The position numbers were made by a program, and so were the translations under genes. The notes beneath the pieces are model-generated. The model was not told the DNA's origin. It saw only the letters and a list, made by a program, of their open reading frames with translations, and ran no database searches. A stretch of 64,000 nt of DNA. Source: Solirubrobacteraceae bacterium (GTDB lineage Bacteria; Actinomycetota; Thermoleophilia; Solirubrobacterales; Solirubrobacteraceae). The stretch covers positions 1-64,000 of the forward strand of contig JADGPL010000004.1 in assembly GCA_017882455.1 (NCBI GenBank), given 5' to 3'. The stretch's first letter is position 1; each line of letters starts with the position of its first letter. Shown one piece after another: positions 8,006 through 57,352 of the stretch.

Positions 8006-9631
8006 ATGCCCCCATCGAATGCAAACCCCGAACCGCGGGTGGATCCGCTGGTGCTGTTGGAGGAACTTCTTCACGGCCTGACGGGCTCACTCGTGCGCCT
8101 CGCGCTCGGCTTGGCGATCGGCATGATCGCCGCTCGACAGATGCGCAGGGCACATCTCCACTGGAGCTGGGCGGCCATCGCCTTCGTCTTGGTGGTGCTC
8201 GCGCGCAAAGGCCTGGGCACCGGCGCTCTGCCACTGGGTGTCGGCTCTGCCTGTGCGACGTCGCGTGGCCGACGCTGGCATCGCGAGGACCTCGACGCGG
8301 GTGGCGACTTGGCAGAGATCGCCGAGCTGCGCCGCACCCCGCTCGATGTTCTCCGTGCGCGCATCGCGGCCGCCCTCCCGCGGCTGCGCCGCCTCGGCGC
8401 GGTCGACCGTGTGCTCGCGAGTCGCAGTCGACGGGATGGTGAGCTCATCATCGGCCGTGACGAGCGCAGTCGAGCGGTGTGGATCCCGTTCGGCGATCAC
8501 CGCGGAGGCCGGCACACGCTGGTGGTCGGTGCGACCGGATCAGGCAAGACGGTCACCCAGACCTCCATGGCGGTTCACGCCATCGAGCGGGGAATGGGTG
8601 CGATCGTGCTCGACCCCAAGGGAGACGACGGCATGCGCGAGCGGCTTCGGCGCGCGGCCCTGGCCGCAGGGCGAGAGTTTCTCGAATGGACCCCGGGCGG
8701 CGGTCTGGTCTACAACCCGTTTGCCGGTGGGGGCGAGACAGAGATCGCCGACAAGGCGCTGGCCGGCGAGCGTTTCACCGAGCCCCACTATCTGCGCCAG
8801 GCTCAGCGCTACCTGGGGCACGTGATCCGCGCTCTGCACTCGAGCTCATCCGAGGTCAGCCTCCGGGCGATCGTCGAGCTGCTCGATCCGGAGTGCCTCG
8901 AGGGCTTGGCTCGCCGCCTGCCCGACGCCGTCGCCGAGCGGACGTTCGCCTATCTGGACTTGCTCACCCCGCGCCAGCGCAGCGATCTCGCGGGGGTGCG
9001 TGACCGATTGGCGATCATGGTCGAGTCGGACGTTGGTCGGTGGCTGGACCCGGAGGCGAGTCACGCCGGTCGTCTCGATCTTCCGACGGCGGTGCGCGCA
9101 CGCGCGACCGTCTATTTCAGGCTCGAGTCCGATAGCCGCCCGCTGCTCGCGCAGATGCTGGGCGCGGCGATCGTCCAAGATCTCCAGACGACGGCGGCCG
9201 CCTTGCAGGCCCACCCACTTGCCACGATGGTCGTGATCGATGAGTTCTCTGCCGTGGCCGCCGAGCAGGTTGCAAGGCTGTTCGGACGGGCACGGTCGGC
9301 CGGGTTCAGCCTGCTCCTGGGAACACAGGAGCTATCGGACCTGCGCCTCCCGGGACGCGAGCGCCTGCTCGAGCAGGTCATGGGCAACCTCTCCGTCCTG
9401 ATAGCCCATCGCCAGATCGTTCCCGGCTCGGCTCAGCTGATCGCCGATGTCTCCGGTAGGAGAGGCGCATGGCGGGTGTCCCGTCACAGCGACGGACGCG
9501 CCACGCGCACCAGGACGCGCGAGGGGATTCTCGATCCAGGCCGGGTCATGAGCCTCGGACAGGGCTGGGCCGCCGTGGTCGTGCCGGGCGCTCCGGGTGG
9601 GGCTCGGATCGCGGCCATCTCCGCTCTCTAG
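8006..9631 (+). CDS. type IV secretion VirD4/TraG-like coupling ATPase
   Basis: A 541-residue protein. Two membrane segments near residues 28-45 and 53-68 are followed by a P-loop ATPase domain: Walker A GATGSGKT at 175-182, a conserved LDPKGD strand near 204, and Walker B VVIDE at about 409-413. The family docks DNA-protein complexes at a type IV transfer channel. ATG 8006 is preferred to GTG 8003 because it leaves six bases to the GGAGG at 7995-7999. The gene sits between the response regulator and a relaxation-type protein. No other transfer-channel gene (VirB4, VirB6 and so on) is visible in the window. Confidence 0.85.
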   Translation: MPPSNANPEPRVDPLVLLEELLHGLTGSLVRLALGLAIGMIAARQMRRAHLHWSWAAIAFVLVVLARKGLGTGALPLGVGSACATSRGRRWHREDLDAGGDLAEIAELRRTPLDVLRARIAAALPRLRRLGAVDRVLASRSRRDGELIIGRDERSRAVWIPFGDHRGGRHTLVVGATGSGKTVTQTSMAVHAIERGMGAIVLDPKGDDGMRERLRRAALAAGREFLEWTPGGGLVYNPFAGGGETEIADKALAGERFTEPHYLRQAQRYLGHVIRALHSSSSEVSLRAIVELLDPECLEGLARRLPDAVAERTFAYLDLLTPRQRSDLAGVRDRLAIMVESDVGRWLDPEASHAGRLDLPTAVRARATVYFRLESDSRPLLAQMLGAAIVQDLQTTAAALQAHPLATMVVIDEFSAVAAEQVARLFGRARSAGFSLLLGTQELSDLRLPGRERLLEQVMGNLSVLIAHRQIVPGSAQLIADVSGRRGAWRVSRHSDGRATRTRTREGILDPGRVMSLGQGWAAVVVPGAPGGARIAAISAL

Positions 9632-14191: not shown

Positions 14192-15090
14192 TCCGCCTTG
14201 CCATCCGTGTGGCTCGCGATCAGGCCGAGCTCGTGCTCGCCGAGCTGCTCGAGCTGACGCCGGCCGGAGTCGAGGAGTCGCAGGGTCACGACGACACGAT
14301 CGAGTATGCCGTCTACGGCGCCCCGGGTGAGCTCCCGAGCCTGCCCGACCTGGAGGCCGTCGTGGGGGAGGCGCTCGTGGAGATCTCCACGAGCGAAGTG
14401 TCCGACGACTGGCATGAGCGGTGGAAGCGCTTCCACCGGCCGATCCTGATTCCAGCGCCCGCCGGCGCGGCTGCCGGCGTCAGCGGAATGCCGGTCTCCG
14501 CGCTGCATGTGCGCCCGCCGTGGGAGGCGCCCAGCGAGCACTCAGGCGGCGCGGTGCGAGAGATCGTGATTGACCCTGGACAGGCCTTTGGCACGGGCGC
14601 GCATGCCAGCACGCGCCTGTGCCTCGAGCTGCTGCTGGAGCTGGCCGCGCGCGAGGGCCCATCCGGTGCGCTGCTGGACGTGGGCACCGGCTCGGGGGTC
14701 CTGGCGATAGCGGCGGCCGCGCTCGGCTTCGCCCCGGTACTGGGTCTCGACAACGAGCAGGAGAGCGTGCTCGCGGCCGCCGAGAACGCGACCGTCAACG
14801 GGGTCGATGTCGCCGTTCGTCGCCTCGACCTGCGCTCAGAAGCGTTGCCCTGGGGCGAGCGGGCCGGGGCGCCGAACGCTCCGTCGGTGGTTCTCGCCAA
14901 CCTCCTGCGCCCCTTGCTGCTGGAGCTCGCCGGCACGATGCCGGGCGTCCCCGCCCATCTCGTGGCCGGTGGCCTGCTGCGAGGGGAGGTCGACGAGGTC
15001 GTCGGGGCATTCGCCCAGCGGCTCGGCCTGCATGAGCGCGAGCGGCGCGCCAGCGGCGAGTGGGCCGCCGTATGGCTGACCGCCGCCTGA
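14188..15090 (+). CDS. prmA: ribosomal protein L11 methyltransferase
   Basis: A 300-residue S-adenosylmethionine-dependent methyltransferase that trimethylates ribosomal protein L11 in E. coli. The PrmA signature GQAFGTGAHASTRLCLELL precedes motif I LDVGTGSGVLAIAA, and VVLANLLRPLL matches the conserved (N/A)xL motif of the catalytic loop. The GTG start at 14188 overlaps the dnaJ stop by four bases (GTGA). It ends one base before the stop of the convergent amidohydrolase gene; no terminator is visible between them. Confidence 0.9.
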   Translation: MIRLAIRVARDQAELVLAELLELTPAGVEESQGHDDTIEYAVYGAPGELPSLPDLEAVVGEALVEISTSEVSDDWHERWKRFHRPILIPAPAGAAAGVSGMPVSALHVRPPWEAPSEHSGGAVREIVIDPGQAFGTGAHASTRLCLELLLELAAREGPSGALLDVGTGSGVLAIAAAALGFAPVLGLDNEQESVLAAAENATVNGVDVAVRRLDLRSEALPWGERAGAPNAPSVVLANLLRPLLLELAGTMPGVPAHLVAGGLLRGEVDEVVGAFAQRLGLHERERRASGEWAAVWLTAA

Positions 15091-16248: not shown

Positions 16249-17574
16249 ATGGCCTGTCAGGTCGTGATCGCGGGTGGCGGGTTTGCGGGTTTCTACGCAG
16301 CTCAGGCCCTCGAGCGCCTGCTGCCGGAGCAGAGCGCCCACGTGACCCTCGTCAACGAGGCCAACTTCCTGCTCTATACGCCCTTGCTCCCGGGCGCCGC
16401 CGGAGCCACGCTCGATCCGCGCCACGTGGTCGTGCCCCTGCGCTCGCAGCTGCGCCGCACCGACCTCGTGATCGGGCGGGTGACAGGGGCCGAGCCCACG
16501 CGCCGCACGCTCGGGGTGCTACGGATCGACGGTGAGCAGCTCGAGCTCGGCTACGACCAGCTGATCGTGGCACTCGGGTCGGTGTCCCGAACGCTTCCGA
16601 TTCCCGGCCTGGCCGAGCACGCCACCGGCCTGAAGTCGCTCTCAGATGCCACCGCGCTGCGCAACCAGGTGCTCAGCTGCCTCGACATCGCCGAGTCGAT
16701 CGAGGACCCCGCTCGTCGCAGCGAGTACCTCGGGTTCGTGTTCGTCGGTGCCGGATACGCCGGCGTGGAGGGCCTGGCCGAGCTCCAGGACTTCGCCGTG
16801 CAGGCGATCGAGCTGTATCCCCGCTGCCGGGCCCAGGGGATGCGCTGGGTCCTGGTGGAGGCCAAGGGCCGGATCATGCAGGAGGTTCCCGCGAGCCTCT
16901 CCGAGTTCGCCGAACGCGAGCTGCGCCGGCGCGGGATCGAGGTCCGCACCGAGACGACGCTGGCCGAGGTCAGCGCTCACGGCGCGAGGCTCTCCGTGGG
17001 CGAGGAGATCCCTGCGCGCACCGTCGTGTGGACCGCGGGCGTAAAGCCGAGTCCTGCGATCGCCAGGCTCGGTTTGCCGCTCGACGGCGCCGGCAGGATC
17101 GTGGTCGACGCCACCATGCGGGTCGTCGACCCGGCTGCGCCGTCACCCGCTGCGACCACTGCCGGTGCCCCGATCGCCCAGGTCTGGGCGATCGGAGATG
17201 GCGCAGCCGTTCCCGACGCCTCGCGGCCGGGCCAGGCGTGTCCGCCGACAGCGCAGCACGCGATCCGGCAGGGCCGGCTGGTGGCGCGCAACGTTGTGGC
17301 CACGCTGGGCGGGGAAGCTCCACGGCCGTTTCGCTACCGCACCAAGGGCGTCGTGGCGGAGCTCGGCCGCAACAAGGCCGTGGCGATCACCCTGGGCATT
17401 CGCTGGCGGGGCTTTCCGGCCTGGCTGATCGCGCGCACCTACCACCTGCTGCTGATGCCCGGCTTTGGACGCAGGCTGCGTCTGCTCGTCGACTGGAACG
17501 TCGCGCTGCTGTTCGGTCGGGACGCCTCCTCTCCCGGGCGCCTCGGCGCTCCCACGCCGTTGGAGCATGATTGA
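16249..17574 (+). CDS. type II NADH dehydrogenase-like FAD oxidoreductase
   Basis: A 441-residue member of the pyridine nucleotide-disulfide oxidoreductase family, closest to NDH-2, which passes electrons from NADH to quinone at the membrane without pumping protons. The FAD-binding loop GGGFAGFYAA is at the N-terminus; FLLYTPLLPGAAGATLDPRH is the typical NDH-2 stretch; the NADH-binding loop VGAGYAGVEGLAEL lies mid-protein; the second FAD motif VWAIGDGA follows near residue 317. A basic, aromatic C-terminal region (WLIARTYHLLLMPGFGRRL) probably anchors it to the membrane. It stands alone, divergent from the amidohydrolase. Confidence 0.85.
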   Translation: MACQVVIAGGGFAGFYAAQALERLLPEQSAHVTLVNEANFLLYTPLLPGAAGATLDPRHVVVPLRSQLRRTDLVIGRVTGAEPTRRTLGVLRIDGEQLELGYDQLIVALGSVSRTLPIPGLAEHATGLKSLSDATALRNQVLSCLDIAESIEDPARRSEYLGFVFVGAGYAGVEGLAELQDFAVQAIELYPRCRAQGMRWVLVEAKGRIMQEVPASLSEFAERELRRRGIEVRTETTLAEVSAHGARLSVGEEIPARTVVWTAGVKPSPAIARLGLPLDGAGRIVVDATMRVVDPAAPSPAATTAGAPIAQVWAIGDGAAVPDASRPGQACPPTAQHAIRQGRLVARNVVATLGGEAPRPFRYRTKGVVAELGRNKAVAITLGIRWRGFPAWLIARTYHLLLMPGFGRRLRLLVDWNVALLFGRDASSPGRLGAPTPLEHD

Positions 17575-19499: not shown

Positions 19500-20377
19500 G
19501 CCGCAGCGGCTTCGTGGCGCTCGCCGGGCGCCCCAACGTCGGCAAGTCGACCTTCGTCAACGCCGTGGTGGGCGAGAAGGTCGCAATCGTCTCCGACCGC
19601 CCCCAGACCACCAGGCGCGCGATTCGCGGGGTTCATCGAAGCGGCGATACCCAGATGGTCCTCGTCGACCTGCCCGGCGTGCAGCGCCCCCGCGACGCGC
19701 TCACCTCGCGGATGGCCCGGCGCGTCCAGCAGGAGCTGGAAGGCGCGGATGCCGCGCTGCTGATTCTCAACGGCGAGCAGGGTGTCGGCCCCGGCGACCG
19801 CTTCATCGCCAAAACGCTCGGCGAGGCGCGGCTCGATGTCGCGATCGCGGTCAACAAGGCGGATCGACTCTCTCGAGCAGCGCTCATCGCCGTGCTCGAG
19901 CAGGCCGCCGAGCTCGAGCTCGAGGGCGAGGTGTTTCCGATCTCGGCGCGCCGCGGATCGGGCGTGGCCGAGCTCGTGGCCCATCTCGCCTCGCTGATGC
20001 CCGAGGGCCCTTTCATGTTCGCTGCCGAGGCTTCATCCGATCAGCCTCGCGAGCAGCTGTTGGCGGAGCTGATCCGCGAGGCTGTCATCAGGCGCACCTT
20101 CCAAGAGGTGCCCCATGCGGTCGAGGTGGTGGTCGAAGAGGTTGACCTCGTGCGCGAGGGTCTCGCCAGGGTGAGGGCGCTGATCTGGGTGGAGAGCGAC
20201 TCGCAGAAGGGCATTCTGATCGGCGCGAGGGGACGGATGATCAAGGCGATCGGCACGGCCGCACGCCGCGAGCTGCAGCGCGAGCTCGACTGCCAGGTCC
20301 ATCTCGACCTCTCTGTGCGGGTGCGCCGCGACTGGCGCGGCGACGAGGGGCTGCTGGATCGGCTCGGCATCACCTAG
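19496..20377 (+). CDS. era: GTPase Era
   Basis: A 293-residue GTPase that binds the 3' end of 16S rRNA during 30S assembly. G1 is GRPNVGKS, the switch region is TTRRAIRG, G3 is DLPG, G4 is NKAD, and a C-terminal KH domain follows (GILIGARGRMIKAIG). GTG 19496 overlaps the ybeY stop and gives the family start SGFVALAGRPNVGKS; an earlier in-frame start at 19469 would lie inside ybeY and add nothing. The stop codon is part of a long palindrome (20375-20398). Confidence 0.94.
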   Translation: MSRSGFVALAGRPNVGKSTFVNAVVGEKVAIVSDRPQTTRRAIRGVHRSGDTQMVLVDLPGVQRPRDALTSRMARRVQQELEGADAALLILNGEQGVGPGDRFIAKTLGEARLDVAIAVNKADRLSRAALIAVLEQAAELELEGEVFPISARRGSGVAELVAHLASLMPEGPFMFAAEASSDQPREQLLAELIREAVIRRTFQEVPHAVEVVVEEVDLVREGLARVRALIWVESDSQKGILIGARGRMIKAIGTAARRELQRELDCQVHLDLSVRVRRDWRGDEGLLDRLGIT

Positions 20378-20398
20378 GTGGTTGGAACCAACCACCTA
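20375..20398. terminator. palindrome including the era stop codon; possible terminator
   Basis: TAGGTGGTTGG (20375-20385) pairs perfectly with CCAACCACCTA (20388-20398) around a central AA. The TAG is the era stop. A stem of this strength would end or stabilise the transcript, but no T-run follows. It could instead be an operator, for instance for the PadR-type regulator encoded 150 bp downstream. Confidence 0.45.
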
Positions 20399-20484
20399 GA
20401 CGCGCGCCTCTCGCAGGGTTCCGATAAACGCACGGGATCTACTGCCAGGAAGTTCCAGCCCATCTGATTCATTGCACCCTTGGG

Positions 20485-52939: not shown

Positions 52940-54061
52940 ATGGAACGCTCGCTGGTAGCGCGTCTCGTCGGTCCTCTCGGGCTTCCGGCGCTTCGCCGAC
53001 CGCCGCGCTCTCCTGCCTCCAGGCCCCGCCCCCGTGAAAAGCCGTCGCGCTCCTCCTCGGGGCTGCGGCCGCTGGATCGCACGCGCGCGGTGCTCGCGCT
53101 GCTGTGGCGCGGTCGGCGCACGCGCATTGCGCTGATCGCGGTGCTGATCGCGCTGCCGGTGCTCGCGGGCGGCTACCTGCTGCTGCGCAACTCCTCCTTC
53201 GTGGCGGTGCGGCGGGTGCAGGTCAGCGGCGTGCACGGCGCGGAGGCGCAGGCGATCGAAGCGGCGCTGGTCACGGCGGCCCGGCACATGAGCACGCTGG
53301 ACATCCACGCGGGCGCGCTGCGGGCTGCGGTCGCGCCGTTTCGCGTCGTGAGCTCGATCCGGGCGATCCCGAGCTTTCCACACGGCCTGCGCATCGAGGT
53401 CTCCGAGCAGCTGCCCGTGGCGGCGCTGCTTGTGAACTCTCAGCGCACTGCTGTGGCGGCGGATGGCATCGTCCTCGGTCCGGCTCTGCTGTCGAGCTCG
53501 CTGCCCACGCTCACCGGCTACCTCGAGCAGCCGCCCGGCGCGCGGCTGCACAGCCCGTTCCTGCTCGAATCCCTGGCTGTGCTCGGGGCGGCGCCGCGAG
53601 CGCTTGCAAGGCATGTGGCCAAGGTCTACACGAGCCCGGAGGGCCTGACGGTGGCGATGGGTAACGGGCTGCTGGCCTACTTCGGCGACTCGACCCTGCC
53701 GCACGCCAAGTGGCTTTCGCTGGCGCGGGTGCTGGCCGACCACAGCTCGGCGGGCGCCGCCTATGTGGACGTGCGCCTGCCTGCGCGCCCCGCCGCGGGC
53801 TTCCCTGCGGGCGCGGGTCCGGCGAGCTCGCCCACGGGCGAAGGATCCCCTGCGGCCGAAGCCACGGGTTCATCGGAATCGGCGGTTGGTGCGCTCGCGG
53901 CGGGTCTGTCCAAGGAAGGCGGCACGAGCACCACGGCCACCGAACCCTCCTCGAAGGGAGCGACGAGCGAAGAAGCCAAGACGACTTCGGGAGGCACGGG
54001 AGAATCGGAATCGGCCTCCCCGGCGGAAGCCGGTCAGGAAGCGCCTGCGCCCGGCGGTTGA
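52940..54061 (+). CDS. ftsQ: cell division protein FtsQ
   Basis: A 373-residue bitopic division protein. A basic cytoplasmic part (1-60), one membrane span (IALIAVLIALPVLAGGYLLL, about 64-83), and a POTRA domain (FVAVRRVQVSGVHGAEAQAI) are followed by the FtsQ/DivIB beta domain to about residue 280. The last 90 residues are low-complexity Ser/Glu/Gly/Ala, with all eleven Glu codons GAA. It recruits FtsL/FtsB and later division proteins. AGGTAGGG lies before ATG 52940. A hairpin follows its stop. Confidence 0.88.
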   Translation: MERSLVARLVGPLGLPALRRPPRSPASRPRPREKPSRSSSGLRPLDRTRAVLALLWRGRRTRIALIAVLIALPVLAGGYLLLRNSSFVAVRRVQVSGVHGAEAQAIEAALVTAARHMSTLDIHAGALRAAVAPFRVVSSIRAIPSFPHGLRIEVSEQLPVAALLVNSQRTAVAADGIVLGPALLSSSLPTLTGYLEQPPGARLHSPFLLESLAVLGAAPRALARHVAKVYTSPEGLTVAMGNGLLAYFGDSTLPHAKWLSLARVLADHSSAGAAYVDVRLPARPAAGFPAGAGPASSPTGEGSPAAEATGSSESAVGALAAGLSKEGGTSTTATEPSSKGATSEEAKTTSGGTGESESASPAEAGQEAPAPGG

Positions 54062-54069
54062 TAGGCTAA

Positions 54070-54090
54070 GCCTCGACCTGAGGTTGAGGC
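54070..54090 (+). terminator. hairpin after ftsQ
   Basis: GCCTCGACC (54070-54078) pairs with GGTTGAGGC (54082-54090) with one G-U pair and a TGA loop. It begins eight bases after the ftsQ stop, but no T-run follows, so it is only a possible terminator between the dcw operon and the ftsZ promoter. Confidence 0.4.
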
Positions 54091-54166
54091 AGCTGGAATG
54101 CCATTCTCAGGTGGTGGTTGAGAGTCCTGGGATCTGCAACGATTCTTGCGAGACTCGGGGGCGTCG

Positions 54167-54195
54167 TTGACAGGGCGAAGATCCCTGCATAACGT
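54167..54195 (+). promoter_or_regulatory. ftsZ promoter
   Basis: TTGACA (54167-54172), a perfect -35, lies 17 bp before TAACGT (54190-54195). The start would be near 54202, about 68 nt before ftsZ. This gives ftsZ its own expression apart from the long upstream operon. Confidence 0.75.
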
Positions 54196-54244
54196 GCACA
54201 ACCCGGCGGTCCAGCGATCAGTATGCTGCGAACCCTCAATTCCT

Positions 54245-54259
54245 ACCGAAGGCTTCGGT
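54245..54259 (+). other. hairpin in the ftsZ leader
   Basis: ACCGAAG-G-CTTCGGT forms a small stem just before the ftsZ start (11 bases to the ATG). The only Shine-Dalgarno-like bases (GAAGG) lie inside the stem, so folding could limit ribosome access. Confidence 0.4.
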
Positions 54260-54269
54260 CAGAACCATC

Positions 54270-55346
54270 ATGGAGAGCAGCTCTAGCTATCTGGCAGTGA
54301 TCAAGGTCGTGGGCGTGGGCGGCGGCGGCACCAACGCGGTCAGCCGCATGGTCGACGCGGGTCTGCGCGGCGTGGAGTTCATCGCGGCCAACACGGACGC
54401 CCAGGCGCTCGCCATGTGCGACGCCGACATCAAGCTCAACATAGGCCACGACTCGACCAAGGGCCTCGGCGCGGGCGCCAACCCGGACGTGGGTCTCGCA
54501 GCCGCCTCGGAGTCGCGGGACGACATCAAGGAGGCGCTGAAGGGCGCTGACATGGTGTTCGTGACTGCGGGCGAGGGCGGCGGCACGGGCACGGGCGCGG
54601 CCCCGGTGATCGCGGAGATCGCCAAGAATGAGATCGGCGCGCTCACGGTGGGCGTGGTGACGCGCCCGTTCGACTTCGAGGGCTCCCAGCGCGGCCGTCA
54701 GGCGACCGAGGGGATCGAGCGCCTGCGCGAGGTGGTGGACACGCTGATCGTGATCCCCAACGAGAAGCTGCTGGCTGTGGTCGAGCGGCGCACCTCGATG
54801 CTGGACGCCTTCCGCGAGGCCGACAATGTCCTGCGCCAGGGCGTCCAGGGAATAACCGACCTGATCACGATCCCCGGGCTGATCAACCTCGACTTCGCCG
54901 ACGTGCGCACGATCATGCACGACGCGGGCTCGGCCCTGATGGGCATCGGCACGGCAAGCGGCGAGAGCCGCAGCGCGGACGCGGCCAGGGCGGCGATCTC
55001 CTCGCCGCTGCTGGAAGAGTCGGTCGATGGAGCCACGGGCATCCTCCTGAACATCACCGGGGGCAAGGACCTGGGCCTGTTCGAGGTCAATGACGCCGCC
55101 GAGATCATCCAGAACGCGGCTGACGCCAACGCCAACATCATCTTCGGCGCGGTGATCGACGAGGGCATGTCCGATGAGGTCCGCGTGACGGTCATCGGGA
55201 CCGGCTTCGACCACCGCCCCGGCCGCAGCGCAGCACGCGCCAGTCGCACGACGCGTCCGGATCGCGGACCGAGCATCTCAGAGCGCCAGCGCTCCACCCT
55301 GGAGATCTCAGACGACGACATCGACGTCCCGCCGTTCTTGCGGTAG
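54270..55346 (+). CDS. ftsZ: cell division protein FtsZ
   Basis: A 358-residue tubulin-like GTPase that forms the Z ring. [13 protein letters not shown], the tubulin signature [18 protein letters not shown] and the T7 loop [11 protein letters not shown] are all present. A short linker (about 320-345) leads to the conserved C-terminal peptide [11 protein letters not shown], which binds FtsZ partners such as SepF and FtsW. ftsA is absent, as in Actinobacteria. The usual downstream ylmD/yggS/sepF genes are also not here. Confidence 0.97.
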
Positions 55347-55382
55347 GCGGCTCGCTGAGACTCATTCTTTGAGCTGAAAGCT

Positions 55383-55452
55383 CAGATGGCGCATGCGCCA
55401 TCTGGCGGGAGCCCACATGTGGGCTCCCGACGGGCCGCACATGTGCGGCCCG
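55383..55452. repeat. three tandem perfect palindromes, centres 24 bp apart
   Basis: Perfect palindromes of 22 bp (55383-55404, half-site CAGATGGCGCA), 24 bp (55406-55429, half-site CGGGAGCCCACA) and 22 bp (55431-55452, half-site CGGGCCGCACA). Their centres are at 55393.5, 55417.5 and 55441.5. The inner bases are alike (CATG core) while the outer arms differ. A smaller hairpin (TGAGCT-GAA-AGCTCA, 55370-55384) precedes and another (CCGAA-GGGA-TTCGG, 55462-55475) follows. They lie 36 bp behind ftsZ. They may be a terminator cluster, a protein-binding array or a structured RNA. Confidence 0.75.
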
Positions 55453-55454
55453 AA

Positions 55455-55691
55455 CTACTGGCCGAAGGGATTCGGTGCTGCTCGAGTGACTGGTCGTTCG
55501 TCGGCGGGTTGCCTCGAGCGCATCCACCGGTGGATCTTCACGAGTAGCAGCGACGCAGCGAGCCCGGCAAGCAGTATCCAGAACATGCAGCCGGTAGCGA
55601 TGGCTGTGAGACCGAACACCATCACGTGCGGGATGGTGGCGAAGGGGCTGGCGCGGCCCCTGCGATTGGCCTTGCCCGAGTCGCGCGACAT
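55455..55691 (-). CDS. small putative membrane protein
   Basis: A 78-residue protein. After a basic, polar start of about 22 residues it has one long hydrophobic stretch (MVFGLTAIATGCMFWILLAG, continuing LAASLLLVKI) that could span the membrane once or as a hairpin, then a polar tail ending APNPFGQ. Codon third positions are GC-rich in the first two thirds. It is divergent from hicB (29 bp between starts) and converges on ftsZ. No family is recognised and no strong ribosome binding site is seen, so its reality is likely but not certain. Confidence 0.5.
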   Translation of the reverse strand: MSRDSGKANRRGRASPFATIPHVMVFGLTAIATGCMFWILLAGLAASLLLVKIHRWMRSRQPADERPVTRAAPNPFGQ

Positions 55692-55720
55692 CCAATCGAG
55701 CAGTCGGGCGTCCCAGGGGA

Positions 55721-55942
55721 GTGCCTGAGCAGCTCGATTTGACTATCGTCTACGAGTCCGGGGAGGACGGCTGGATTCTCGCGTCGATCCCGGAGGTCGC
55801 CGGCGTCTTCAGCCAGGGTCGCACGCGAGACGAGGCGCGAGCCAACGTCATCGACGCCCTGCGGCTCATGCTCTCGCCCGCGCCCGGTGACATCGACGAT
55901 CAACGCGAGCGCGAGGCACTGCATCTGACCATCGCTGCGTGA
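55721..55942 (+). CDS. hicB: HicB-family antitoxin
   Basis: A 73-residue protein with the HicB fold: LTIVYESGEDGWILASIPEVAGVFSQG is split by strands that end in the typical PEVxGxxxxGxTxxEAxxNxxEAL pattern (TRDEARANVIDALRLML). HicB proteins neutralise the HicA mRNA interferase. This form has only the partial RNase H-like domain and no added DNA-binding domain. GGGGA lies just before GTG 55721. The partner hicA is only a stub (55939-55986), so this is a solitary antitoxin. Confidence 0.8.
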   Translation: MPEQLDLTIVYESGEDGWILASIPEVAGVFSQGRTRDEARANVIDALRLMLSPAPGDIDDQREREALHLTIAA

Positions 55943-55986
55943 AGCGACGAGATCTGGAGCGCCACGAACGGGTCAGGGTACGCTGA
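55939..55986 (+). pseudogene. hicA: truncated hicA toxin remnant
   Basis: GTG 55939 overlaps the hicB stop as GTGA and opens VKRRDLERHERVRVR before a TGA. Complete HicA toxins begin very similarly (MKRRDLxRHLxxxGC) and continue for 50-60 residues with the catalytic His in a GSHxxW/Y motif, none of which is present. The position directly behind hicB supports a decayed toxin gene. The final TGA overlaps a -10 box of the next small gene. Confidence 0.5.
55979..55984 (+). promoter_or_regulatory. -10 box for the 55991 small gene (leaderless)
   Basis: TACGCT ends six bases before GTG 55991. It lies within the end of the hicA stub. Confidence 0.4.
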
Positions 55987-55990
55987 GCCG

Positions 55991-56194
55991 GTGCGCCGGT
56001 ACTTCTACAGAGGTCCCGCGATCTGGCCCGCACGTATCGGAGTGCTCGTCTTCGTTGGGAGCTCGGTCTTCGCGCCCCATAGCGCCGGCTGGCAATACGC
56101 GGGCCAGGCTCTGATGGCGCTCGGCCTCGGAGCTGCGGGTGCGCTCGGTGTTCATAGGCGTCGCCGCAGTGCAGCCACGGACTCGGCCGAATAG
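55991..56194 (+). CDS. 67-residue two-span membrane protein
   Basis: A small protein with a basic start MRRYFYRG, a first hydrophobic span (IGVLVFVGSSVFA), a second (GQALMALGLGAAGALGV) and a basic end HRRRRSAATDSAE. The GTG start is supported by the TACGCT box six bases upstream, the leaderless pattern seen elsewhere in the window. The family is not recognised. It precedes gcvT, which has its own -10 box. Confidence 0.55.
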   Translation: MRRYFYRGPAIWPARIGVLVFVGSSVFAPHSAGWQYAGQALMALGLGAAGALGVHRRRRSAATDSAE

Positions 56195-56267
56195 CTGCGC
56201 GACACATCCCCTGAGCCGGGAATCTCGACCGGATGGTGGCTCGAGGGGCGTCGTGTCTCTCGCCCGC

Positions 56268-56273
56268 TAGCCT
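56268..56273 (+). promoter_or_regulatory. -10 box of the glycine cleavage operon (leaderless)
   Basis: TAGCCT ends eight bases before the gcvT ATG at 56282. With no 5' leader there is no place for a glycine riboswitch, and none of its conserved features is seen in the 87 bp upstream. Confidence 0.45.
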
Positions 56274-56281
56274 GGGGCCGG

Positions 56282-57352
56282 ATGCCGCTGACCCTGCGCC
56301 GCACCGCCCTGTTCGACCGCCATGTGGCGGCGGGCGCCAAGATGGTGGACTTCGCCGGCTGGGAGATGCCGGTGCAATACGAGGGCGTTCGCCAGGAGCA
56401 CATGGCCGTGCGCAACAGCTGCGGGATCTTCGACGTCTCGCACATGGGTGAGATCGAGACCAGCGGACCGCAGGCCCTGGAACTGCTCCAGCGCCTGCTC
56501 TCCAACGACGTCTCCCAGATCCCCGTCGGCGGAGCCCAGTACAGCGTGCTCTGTCGCGAGGACGGCGGCGTGCTCGACGATCTCTTCACCTACAGGCTCG
56601 GCATCGAGCGCTACCTGACGGTCACCAACGCCTCCAACCACGAGCGCGACCTGGAGTGGTTCCAGGCGCACGCCGCGGACTTCCCCGAAGCTCAGGTCAG
56701 CGACGGGATCGACGACTGGGCGATGCTGGCCGTGCAGGGACCGCTCGCGCGCGAGCGAGTCCAGGCGATCTCCGACTGGCCGCTTCCCCCACGCATGAGC
56801 GTGGGCAGACGGCGCCTGGCCGGGGCCGATGTGCTCGTCTGCGGCACCGGCTACACGGGCGAGGAGGGAGTCGAGCTGCTGTGTGATCCCGCCGCCGCGC
56901 CCGCGCTGTGGGATGAGATCGTGCGTCGCGGCGCCATGCCCGCGGGGCTGGGAGCCCGCGACACGCTGCGCCTTGAGGTCTGCTTTCACCTCTACGGCAA
57001 CGACCTGAGCGTGGAGCGCGGGCCGATCGAAGCGGGACTCGGCTGGTGCTGCAAGGAGGACACCCGCTTCATCGGCGCAGAGGCCGTCCGCGCCGTTCGA
57101 GCCGCTGGGCCGGCCGAGAAGCTCGTGGCGTTCGAGATCGACGGCCCCGGGATCGCGCGGCAGGGCAACCAGATCGTCGGGGGAGGGGTGGTCACCAGCG
57201 GCACGCTCTCGCCGAGCCTGGGACGCGGCATCGGCATGGCCTATGTGCCTGCCGCGCGCGCCGCCACGGGGACCCGCCTGGAGATAGACGTTCGTGGCAA
57301 GATGCGCCCCGCCGTGATCAAGGACAAGCCGCTTTACAGAAAGGGCTCGTGA
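56282..57352 (+). CDS. gcvT: aminomethyltransferase (glycine cleavage T protein)
   Basis: A 356-residue folate enzyme that releases ammonia from the lipoyl-bound aminomethyl group and forms methylene-tetrahydrofolate. MVDFAGWEMPVQYEGVRQEH, FDVSHMGEIE, YTVTNASN-like (YLTVTNASNHERDL) and GTGYTGEEGVEL are family motifs; GLGARDTLRLEVCFHLYGND holds the folate-contacting residues. It is followed with no gap by gcvH. Confidence 0.95.
   Translation: MPLTLRRTALFDRHVAAGAKMVDFAGWEMPVQYEGVRQEHMAVRNSCGIFDVSHMGEIETSGPQALELLQRLLSNDVSQIPVGGAQYSVLCREDGGVLDDLFTYRLGIERYLTVTNASNHERDLEWFQAHAADFPEAQVSDGIDDWAMLAVQGPLARERVQAISDWPLPPRMSVGRRRLAGADVLVCGTGYTGEEGVELLCDPAAAPALWDEIVRRGAMPAGLGARDTLRLEVCFHLYGNDLSVERGPIEAGLGWCCKEDTRFIGAEAVRAVRAAGPAEKLVAFEIDGPGIARQGNQIVGGGVVTSGTLSPSLGRGIGMAYVPAARAATGTRLEIDVRGKMRPAVIKDKPLYRKGS

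What the first reader, a model, noticed from the sequence alone, without database searches (positions are those of the whole stretch)
55370..55475. Three perfect palindromes with an exact 24-bp period behind ftsZ
Palindromes of 22, 24 and 22 bp are packed end to end with centres at exactly 24-bp steps. They share the central CATG but differ in their arms, so they are not simple duplications; arm sequences have diverged while pairing was kept, which signals selection for palindromy. Smaller hairpins flank them. None is followed by a T-run as in a usual terminator.
Basis: seen in the sequence. Interest (0 to 1): 0.65.

Follow-up and report, generated by a model that had tools for sequence, protein, structure and literature searches.

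The report
Dispersed arrays of 24-bp DNA palindromes
The three palindromes behind ftsZ are one copy of a roughly 70-bp repeat made of tandem 24-bp palindromes that is scattered through three genera of soil bacteria, sits between genes and even in frame inside essential genes, and changes its sequence freely while its two arms stay complementary.

Summary
The trio at 55383-55452 is one of 20 arrays in this genome (a Solirubrobacterales MAG). I collected 107 array loci (354 palindromes) from this genome and relatives. The unit is a 24-bp palindrome: 10-bp arms of almost free sequence, a YRCATGYR core, a 24-bp step, usually 3-4 units. Inside the arms 3100 of 3123 base pairs are Watson-Crick and only 2 are G.T (tRNA stems of the same genome: 4.6%), so RNA pairing is unlikely to be what is maintained. 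At shared sites, arrays of different species differ by compensated changes (495) far more than by one-sided ones (16), many of them transversions. Arrays come and go: one ~100-bp insertion between convergent genes is absent in several relatives, and others sit in frame inside leuS, lysA and an ABC-F gene. They show no polarity relative to transcription. A terminator is therefore excluded as the general explanation. Best reading: a mobile-like palindromic repeat (REP/Rickettsia-palindromic-element-like) whose working form is DNA hairpins and whose arms are probably kept complementary by arm-to-arm copying. No Y1 (RAYT) or Y2 transposase was found in this genome. Mobiliser and function remain unknown.

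The parts
55382..55405 (.). Palindrome unit 1 (24-bp tile; perfect over 55383-55404), CAGATGGCGCATGCGCCATCTG
55406..55429 (.). Palindrome unit 2 (perfect 24 bp), CGGGAGCCCACATGTGGGCTCCCG
55430..55453 (.). Palindrome unit 3 (24-bp tile; perfect over 55431-55452), CGGGCCGCACATGTGCGGCCCG
55370..55384 (.). Small hairpin TGAGCT-GAA-AGCTCA overlapping the left edge of the array; not part of the repeated unit in other copies
   Evidence: read directly
55462..55475 (.). Small hairpin CCGAA-GGGA-TTCGG right of the array; not part of the repeated unit
   Evidence: read directly; paired in the fold
54270..55346 (+). ftsZ, upstream neighbour; its stop codon is 36 bp before the array
   Evidence: Pfam Tubulin and FtsZ_C; distance

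Best explanation
This is one copy of a dispersed, mobile-like palindromic repeat: usually 3-4 abutting 24-bp palindromes, each with 10-bp arms and a YRCATGYR core. Shown: the array family; its place between genes and in frame inside genes; gain or loss between close species; complementary arms without sequence conservation; almost no G.T pairs; no polarity relative to transcription. Inferred: (1) what matters is pairing of arm with arm in DNA (single-strand hairpin or cruciform with a CATG tip), because bases that are free but perfectly correlated cannot come from a protein that reads the bases; (2) the arms stay complementary mainly because one arm is copied onto the other (template switching during replication at a hairpin), while some constraint holds the length at 24 bp and keeps the CATG core; (3) the element spreads by an unidentified activity that needs the hairpins, and behaves as selfish or nearly neutral DNA tolerated near stop codons and in loops of proteins.
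For: 20 array loci in this genome, 27 pattern matches against 0 for the reversed control; 107 array loci with 354 palindromes, step 24 in 171 of 247, length limited to 24 bp (13 of 282 pair further). Interior arm pairs 3100 of 3123 Watson-Crick, 2 G.T, 3 A.C; random dealing 50%; tRNA stems 4.6% G.T. Shared sites: 495 compensated against 16 one-sided interior differences, with transversions in the majority; cleanest case L095/L161. Empty sites: Rrf2/ABC gene pair, acyl-CoA dehydrogenase locus, ftsZ. In-frame insertion in leuS, lysA, ABC-F and a carboxylase gene. Copy number 27 here against 1 in sister G010. No polarity: 28 against 30. Template switching as a source of coupled hairpin changes: PMC8794818, PMC6649704.
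Against: No mobilising enzyme identified; no clear target-site duplication. Arrays at the same sites in many species, even between genera, could mean a conserved function rather than mobility. Enrichment near stop codons and between convergent genes leaves room for a role in transcription. Copying has not been observed directly; very strong selection could also leave few one-sided pairs. Collecting only arrays with at most two mismatches per palindrome (or seven or more matched inner arm pairs) hides decayed copies.
Confidence: 0.5

Rival explanations
1. Transcription terminator or mRNA 3'-end stabiliser: tandem RNA hairpins without a U-tract, working in both directions at operon ends.
For: Median distance to a stop codon about 12 bp; convergent gaps enriched (26 of 96 against 17 of 135 background gaps); divergent gaps depleted (12 of 96 against 41 of 135). 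Stable RNA fold.
Against: In-frame copies inside leuS, lysA, ABC-F and carboxylase genes; 12 in divergent gaps; absent behind the same genes in close relatives; G.T pairs almost absent and no rarer or commoner than A.C; no polarity; no T-run; a copy between pheS and the next co-oriented gene 24 bp away.
Confidence: 0.12
2. Conserved DNA site for a host protein that recognises a cruciform or a series of CATG-tipped hairpins (chromosome organisation, replication or repair), kept by purifying selection with ordinary compensatory mutation.
For: Fixed core, fixed 24-bp length and step, free arms; arrays at the same sites in several species, in part across genera.
Against: Copy number varies from 27 to 0-1 between close species; insertion into essential genes; compensated transversions without intermediates need more than ordinary selection.
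Confidence: 0.2
3. Member of the REP/BIME elements mobilised by RAYT (Y1) transposases.
For: Short dispersed palindromes between genes, near gene ends, with variable copy number.
Against: No Y1_Tnp match in this genome although the search works in control genomes; no GTAG or CGTC tag stands out in the flank consensus; arms have no family sequence.
Confidence: 0.05
4. Pure mutational by-product: template switching makes perfect palindromes anywhere, without an element or a function.
For: Coupled changes; a few other perfect palindromes of 22 bp or more without CATG occur in the sampled 864 kb.
Against: Does not explain the common CATG core, the 24-bp length limit, the 24-bp step, the arrays of three or more, or the clean ~100-bp insertions.
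Confidence: 0.08

Closest known systems
Rickettsia palindromic elements (RPE)
   Same: Dispersed palindromic repeats that also insert in frame into protein-coding genes, which stay open; mobiliser unknown (described in PMC10969869, PMC3733652)
   Different: RPEs are about 150 bp with a recognisable family sequence and lose arm identity with time (as cited in PMC6649704); here 24-bp tandem units with free arms that stay perfect
REP / BIME / REPIN elements with RAYT transposases
   Same: Short palindromic repeats between genes, near gene ends, variable copy number
   Different: No Y1 gene in this genome, no GTAG or CGTC tag, perfect palindromes, no arm consensus
Coding palindromes of Nematomorpha mitochondria
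   Same: Perfect inverted repeats, also in coding DNA; gained and lost; a repeat-conversion mechanism was proposed because imperfect repeats are lacking (PMC6649704)
   Different: Those vary in length up to 284 bp and have no common core or period; here fixed 24 bp, CATG core, arrays, dispersed family
Integron attC sites
   Same: From general knowledge: sequence-variable palindromes recognised by structure as folded single strands
   Different: From general knowledge attC sites have core boxes and extrahelical bases and flank cassettes; none is seen here. No integrase was searched for
Tandem or U-tract-less intrinsic terminators of actinobacteria
   Same: GC-rich hairpins after stop codons without a T-run
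   Different: In-frame copies inside genes, no polarity, no G.T pairs, absent in close relatives

Membership tests
REP elements (RAYT-associated) | Y1 (RAYT-type) transposase in the genome | tested here: not met
   PF01797 absent from G000 (95% complete) while found in 5 control genomes; one relative, G006, has it
REP elements (RAYT-associated) | GTAG or CGTC tetranucleotide at one foot of the palindrome | tested here: not met
   Flank consensus over 107 arrays shows a weak G..GTT on one side, no GTAG or CGTC
Rickettsia palindromic elements | Palindromic repeat inserted in frame in protein-coding genes | tested here: met
   leuS, lysA, ABC-F, carboxylase
Rickettsia palindromic elements | Shared family sequence of about 150 bp | tested here: not met
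   24-bp units, 270 different sequences among 354
Intrinsic terminator | GC-rich hairpin followed by a T-run | tested here: not met
   No terminator-like site at the array
Intrinsic terminator | Transcript 3' ends at the element | not testable with these tools
   Needs Term-seq
Known structured RNA family | Match to an Rfam model | tested here: not met
   No match up to E = 1 in 54000-57000
IS91-type (Y2) mobilised element | Y2 transposase in array-bearing genomes | tested here: not met
   PF04986 in G022 only of 14 genomes; none in G000. The family also rang in none of the 14 controls
Integron attC | IntI-type integrase and attC core boxes | not tested
   No integrase search was made

The most novel reading that the evidence does not exclude
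A class of mobile DNA with almost no sequence of its own: only a form (tandem 24-bp hairpins with a CATG tip) is recognised and spread, while an active arm-to-arm copying process keeps rewriting the arms and restoring perfect palindromes in place, including inside essential genes.
Probability: 0.3. Interest if true: 0.85.

Novelty: new variant of a known kind. Interest (0 to 1): 0.62.

Why it matters
In most dispersed repeats the sequence is inherited and the structure decays; here the structure is inherited and the sequence drifts. With 20 arrays in one genome, hundreds of palindromes, empty sites and shared sites, it gives a natural test of how compensatory changes arise: by selection on single mutations, or by coupled copying of one arm onto the other. 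It would also be an actinobacterial counterpart of the in-frame palindromic insertions known from Rickettsia, and points to an unidentified enzyme that handles DNA hairpins.

Tried and rejected
Terminator as the general role: rejected (in-frame copies, no polarity, no U-tract). RAYT/REP: no Y1 gene, no tag. IS91-type Y2: only in G022 among 14 genomes, so not linked to array number. Rfam: nothing. Phage or plasmid origin: nothing similar in phages or plasmids, and the strict two-palindrome pattern is absent from viral contigs. A base-reading protein binding the arms: rejected, the arms are free. My first look behind ftsZ in relatives read minus-strand loci on the wrong side; corrected. Two calls to count tRNA pairs failed in parsing before worked. 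Searches for papers on tandem palindromes or on palindromic repeats in this order found nothing about this family.

Full report
Observation. The three palindromes exist at the given place: 55383-55404, 55406-55429 and 55431-55452, centres exactly 24 bp apart, all with CATG in the middle. Shuffled windows contain about 0.04 palindromes of at least 22 bp per 64 kb. There is no T-run behind them. They begin 36 bp after the stop codon of ftsZ.

They are not specific to ftsZ. A blastn search of the genome with the 135-bp stretch found similar DNA elsewhere, and those places turned out to be arrays of CATG palindromes. The pattern CATGYRN{12,20}YRCATGYRN{12,20}YRCATG, which does not ask for arm pairing, matches 27 times on each strand of this 3.3-Mb genome and 0 times when read backwards, at 20 loci; the middle palindromes of these matches are nevertheless palindromic. 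In 864 kb of this genome 66 of 115 palindromes of at least 18 bp have a CATG centre; none of those exceeds 24 bp, and nearly all are in arrays.

Distribution. Among 201 genomes of the order and 299 of the class, arrays were seen only in three genera of one family; isolated matches elsewhere are not palindromic by eye. An exact two-palindrome pattern in one genome for each of 84,980 species gave 9 stretches, titled Solirubrobacterales, Solirubrobacteraceae or, once, Actinomycetes MAGs; the last has the same array and flanks as G019 of this genus. No match in viral contigs; nothing similar in phages or plasmids.

Anatomy. 107 array loci with 354 palindromes were collected. Arrays have 3 units (72), 4 (24), or rarely 2, 5 or 6. 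The step between centres is 24 in 171 of 247 cases and 23-26 in all (neighbours were sought within 30 bp). Over 24 bp, 282 palindromes are perfect, 65 have one and 7 have two unpaired positions; 56 of 79 mismatches are at the outermost pair. The core is always YRCATGYR, partly by construction of the search. Pairing beyond 24 bp occurs in 13 of 282, against a quarter by chance, so the length is limited. 270 different sequences occur among the 354. Caveat: collection allowed at most two mismatches per palindrome, or at least seven matched inner arm pairs, so decayed copies are missed.

DNA or RNA. Without duplicate genomes, 3123 interior arm pairs contain 3100 Watson-Crick, 2 G.T, 3 A.C and 18 other pairs; random dealing of right arms gives 50%. 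Stems of eight tRNAs in the same genome have 4.6% G.T (8 of 174). A structure kept by selection on RNA would be expected to accept G.U. The arrays also show no polarity relative to adjacent co-oriented genes (28 against 30). A protein that reads bases would fix bases. Free but correlated bases point to pairing of one arm with the other in DNA, or to copying of one arm onto the other.

Position. A simple codon-usage gene caller of my own placed arrays in ++ 24, -- 34, convergent 26 and divergent 12 gaps and 8 inside genes; background gaps were 35, 42, 17 and 41. The median distance to a stop codon is about 12 bp. Neighbours are ordinary genes: lysyl- and phenylalanyl-tRNA synthetase, dxs, murJ, glyA, ribosomal protein S7, H+-pyrophosphatase and others.

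Inside genes. Arrays lie in frame in leuS of G019, lysA of G006, an ABC-F gene in this genome and three relatives, and a carboxylase gene. Other species have a shorter loop at these places; leuS of G013 and G007 seem to carry related inserts. All eight in-gene copies are read in the same codon phase, with CAT as His. The reading frames stay open, as with Rickettsia palindromic elements (PMC10969869).

Gain and loss. At the convergent Rrf2/ABC gene pair this genome has GCGCTGAGGCGCTGT[array]TCCCGGATCCACTAAGAGGCG, whereas G012 has GCGCTAGGAGGCG and G022, G018 and G004 have similarly short gaps. The partial repeat of the target on both sides of the insert suggests, but does not show, a target duplication. 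The sister species G010 has 1 match against 27 here. Behind ftsZ, arrays occur here and in G022, G006 and G009, but not in most other genus members. Behind an acyl-CoA dehydrogenase gene, six species have one and about ten do not.

Coupled change. Between arrays at shared sites there are 495 compensated and 16 one-sided interior differences; including outermost pairs, 294 of 516 compensated changes are transversions, which have no G.U step. These counts reuse arrays in several comparisons and are not independent. The cleanest pair is L095/L161 (this genome and G022, near murJ): the right flank is identical over 16 bp and two interior pairs differ, both compensated. Palindromes at shared sites are only a little more alike than unrelated ones (6.9 against 6.5 of 10 pairs), so arms are rewritten fast or arrays re-enter the same sites; I cannot fully separate these.

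Mechanism. I favour a mobile-like palindromic repeat whose working form is a series of DNA hairpins, with arms kept complementary by template switching between arms. That process was proposed for the coding palindromes of Nematomorpha (PMC6649704) and for compensated hairpin changes in general (PMC8794818, abstract only). The mobilising activity is unknown: no Y1 and no Y2 transposase in this genome.

Comparison. It resembles REP/BIME elements and RPEs in dispersal, and RPEs in entering genes, but it lacks the tag and the RAYT, has no family sequence in the arms, and tiles at 24 bp. I class it as a new variant of a known kind.

Noticed in passing
window 14372-14395 and 14419-14438: Two perfect palindromes (24 and 20 bp, no CATG core) 45 bp apart in what looks like coding DNA; 24 bp is far above chance.
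   Followed up: no
window 20374-20399 and 17170-17195: Two further 11-bp-stem hairpins with 4-base loops (CTAGGTGGTTG-GAAC-CAACCACCTAG and CCGATCGCCCA-GGTC-TGGGCGATCGG).
   Followed up: no
window 55721-55942: A 73-aa open frame between the array and gcvT, weakly like UPF0150/HicB antitoxins (PF21748, E = 4.7e-5, below the cut-off), with no toxin gene noticed.
   Followed up: partly
G000:C20:125547-126608 and all relatives searched: A second FtsZ-like protein (56-62% identical, open frame about 500 aa) in nearly every genome of the order searched.
   Followed up: no
L020 (G019) downstream of ftsZ: Tandem copies of a ~60-bp unit containing TGGTGAGCGGCTTCCGCTGCCGACCGCTGCATCCGTCCGCTGGGCGTTCACTGACCCCGCC between ftsZ and the next gene, a different repeat from the palindromes.
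   Followed up: no
L108 about 9130-9230 (own genome C37): A looser series in which TGCTGTT or TGTCTGTT precedes single palindromes (GGGATCGCACATGTGCGATCC, GGGGCCGCACATGTGCGG, GGGGCCGCACGTGTGCGGCCCC), perhaps a single-unit form of the element.
   Followed up: no
G004 (several contigs): A 1.4-Mb, 66% complete relative shows many array-like matches in the blastn lists, perhaps the richest member of the genus.
   Followed up: no
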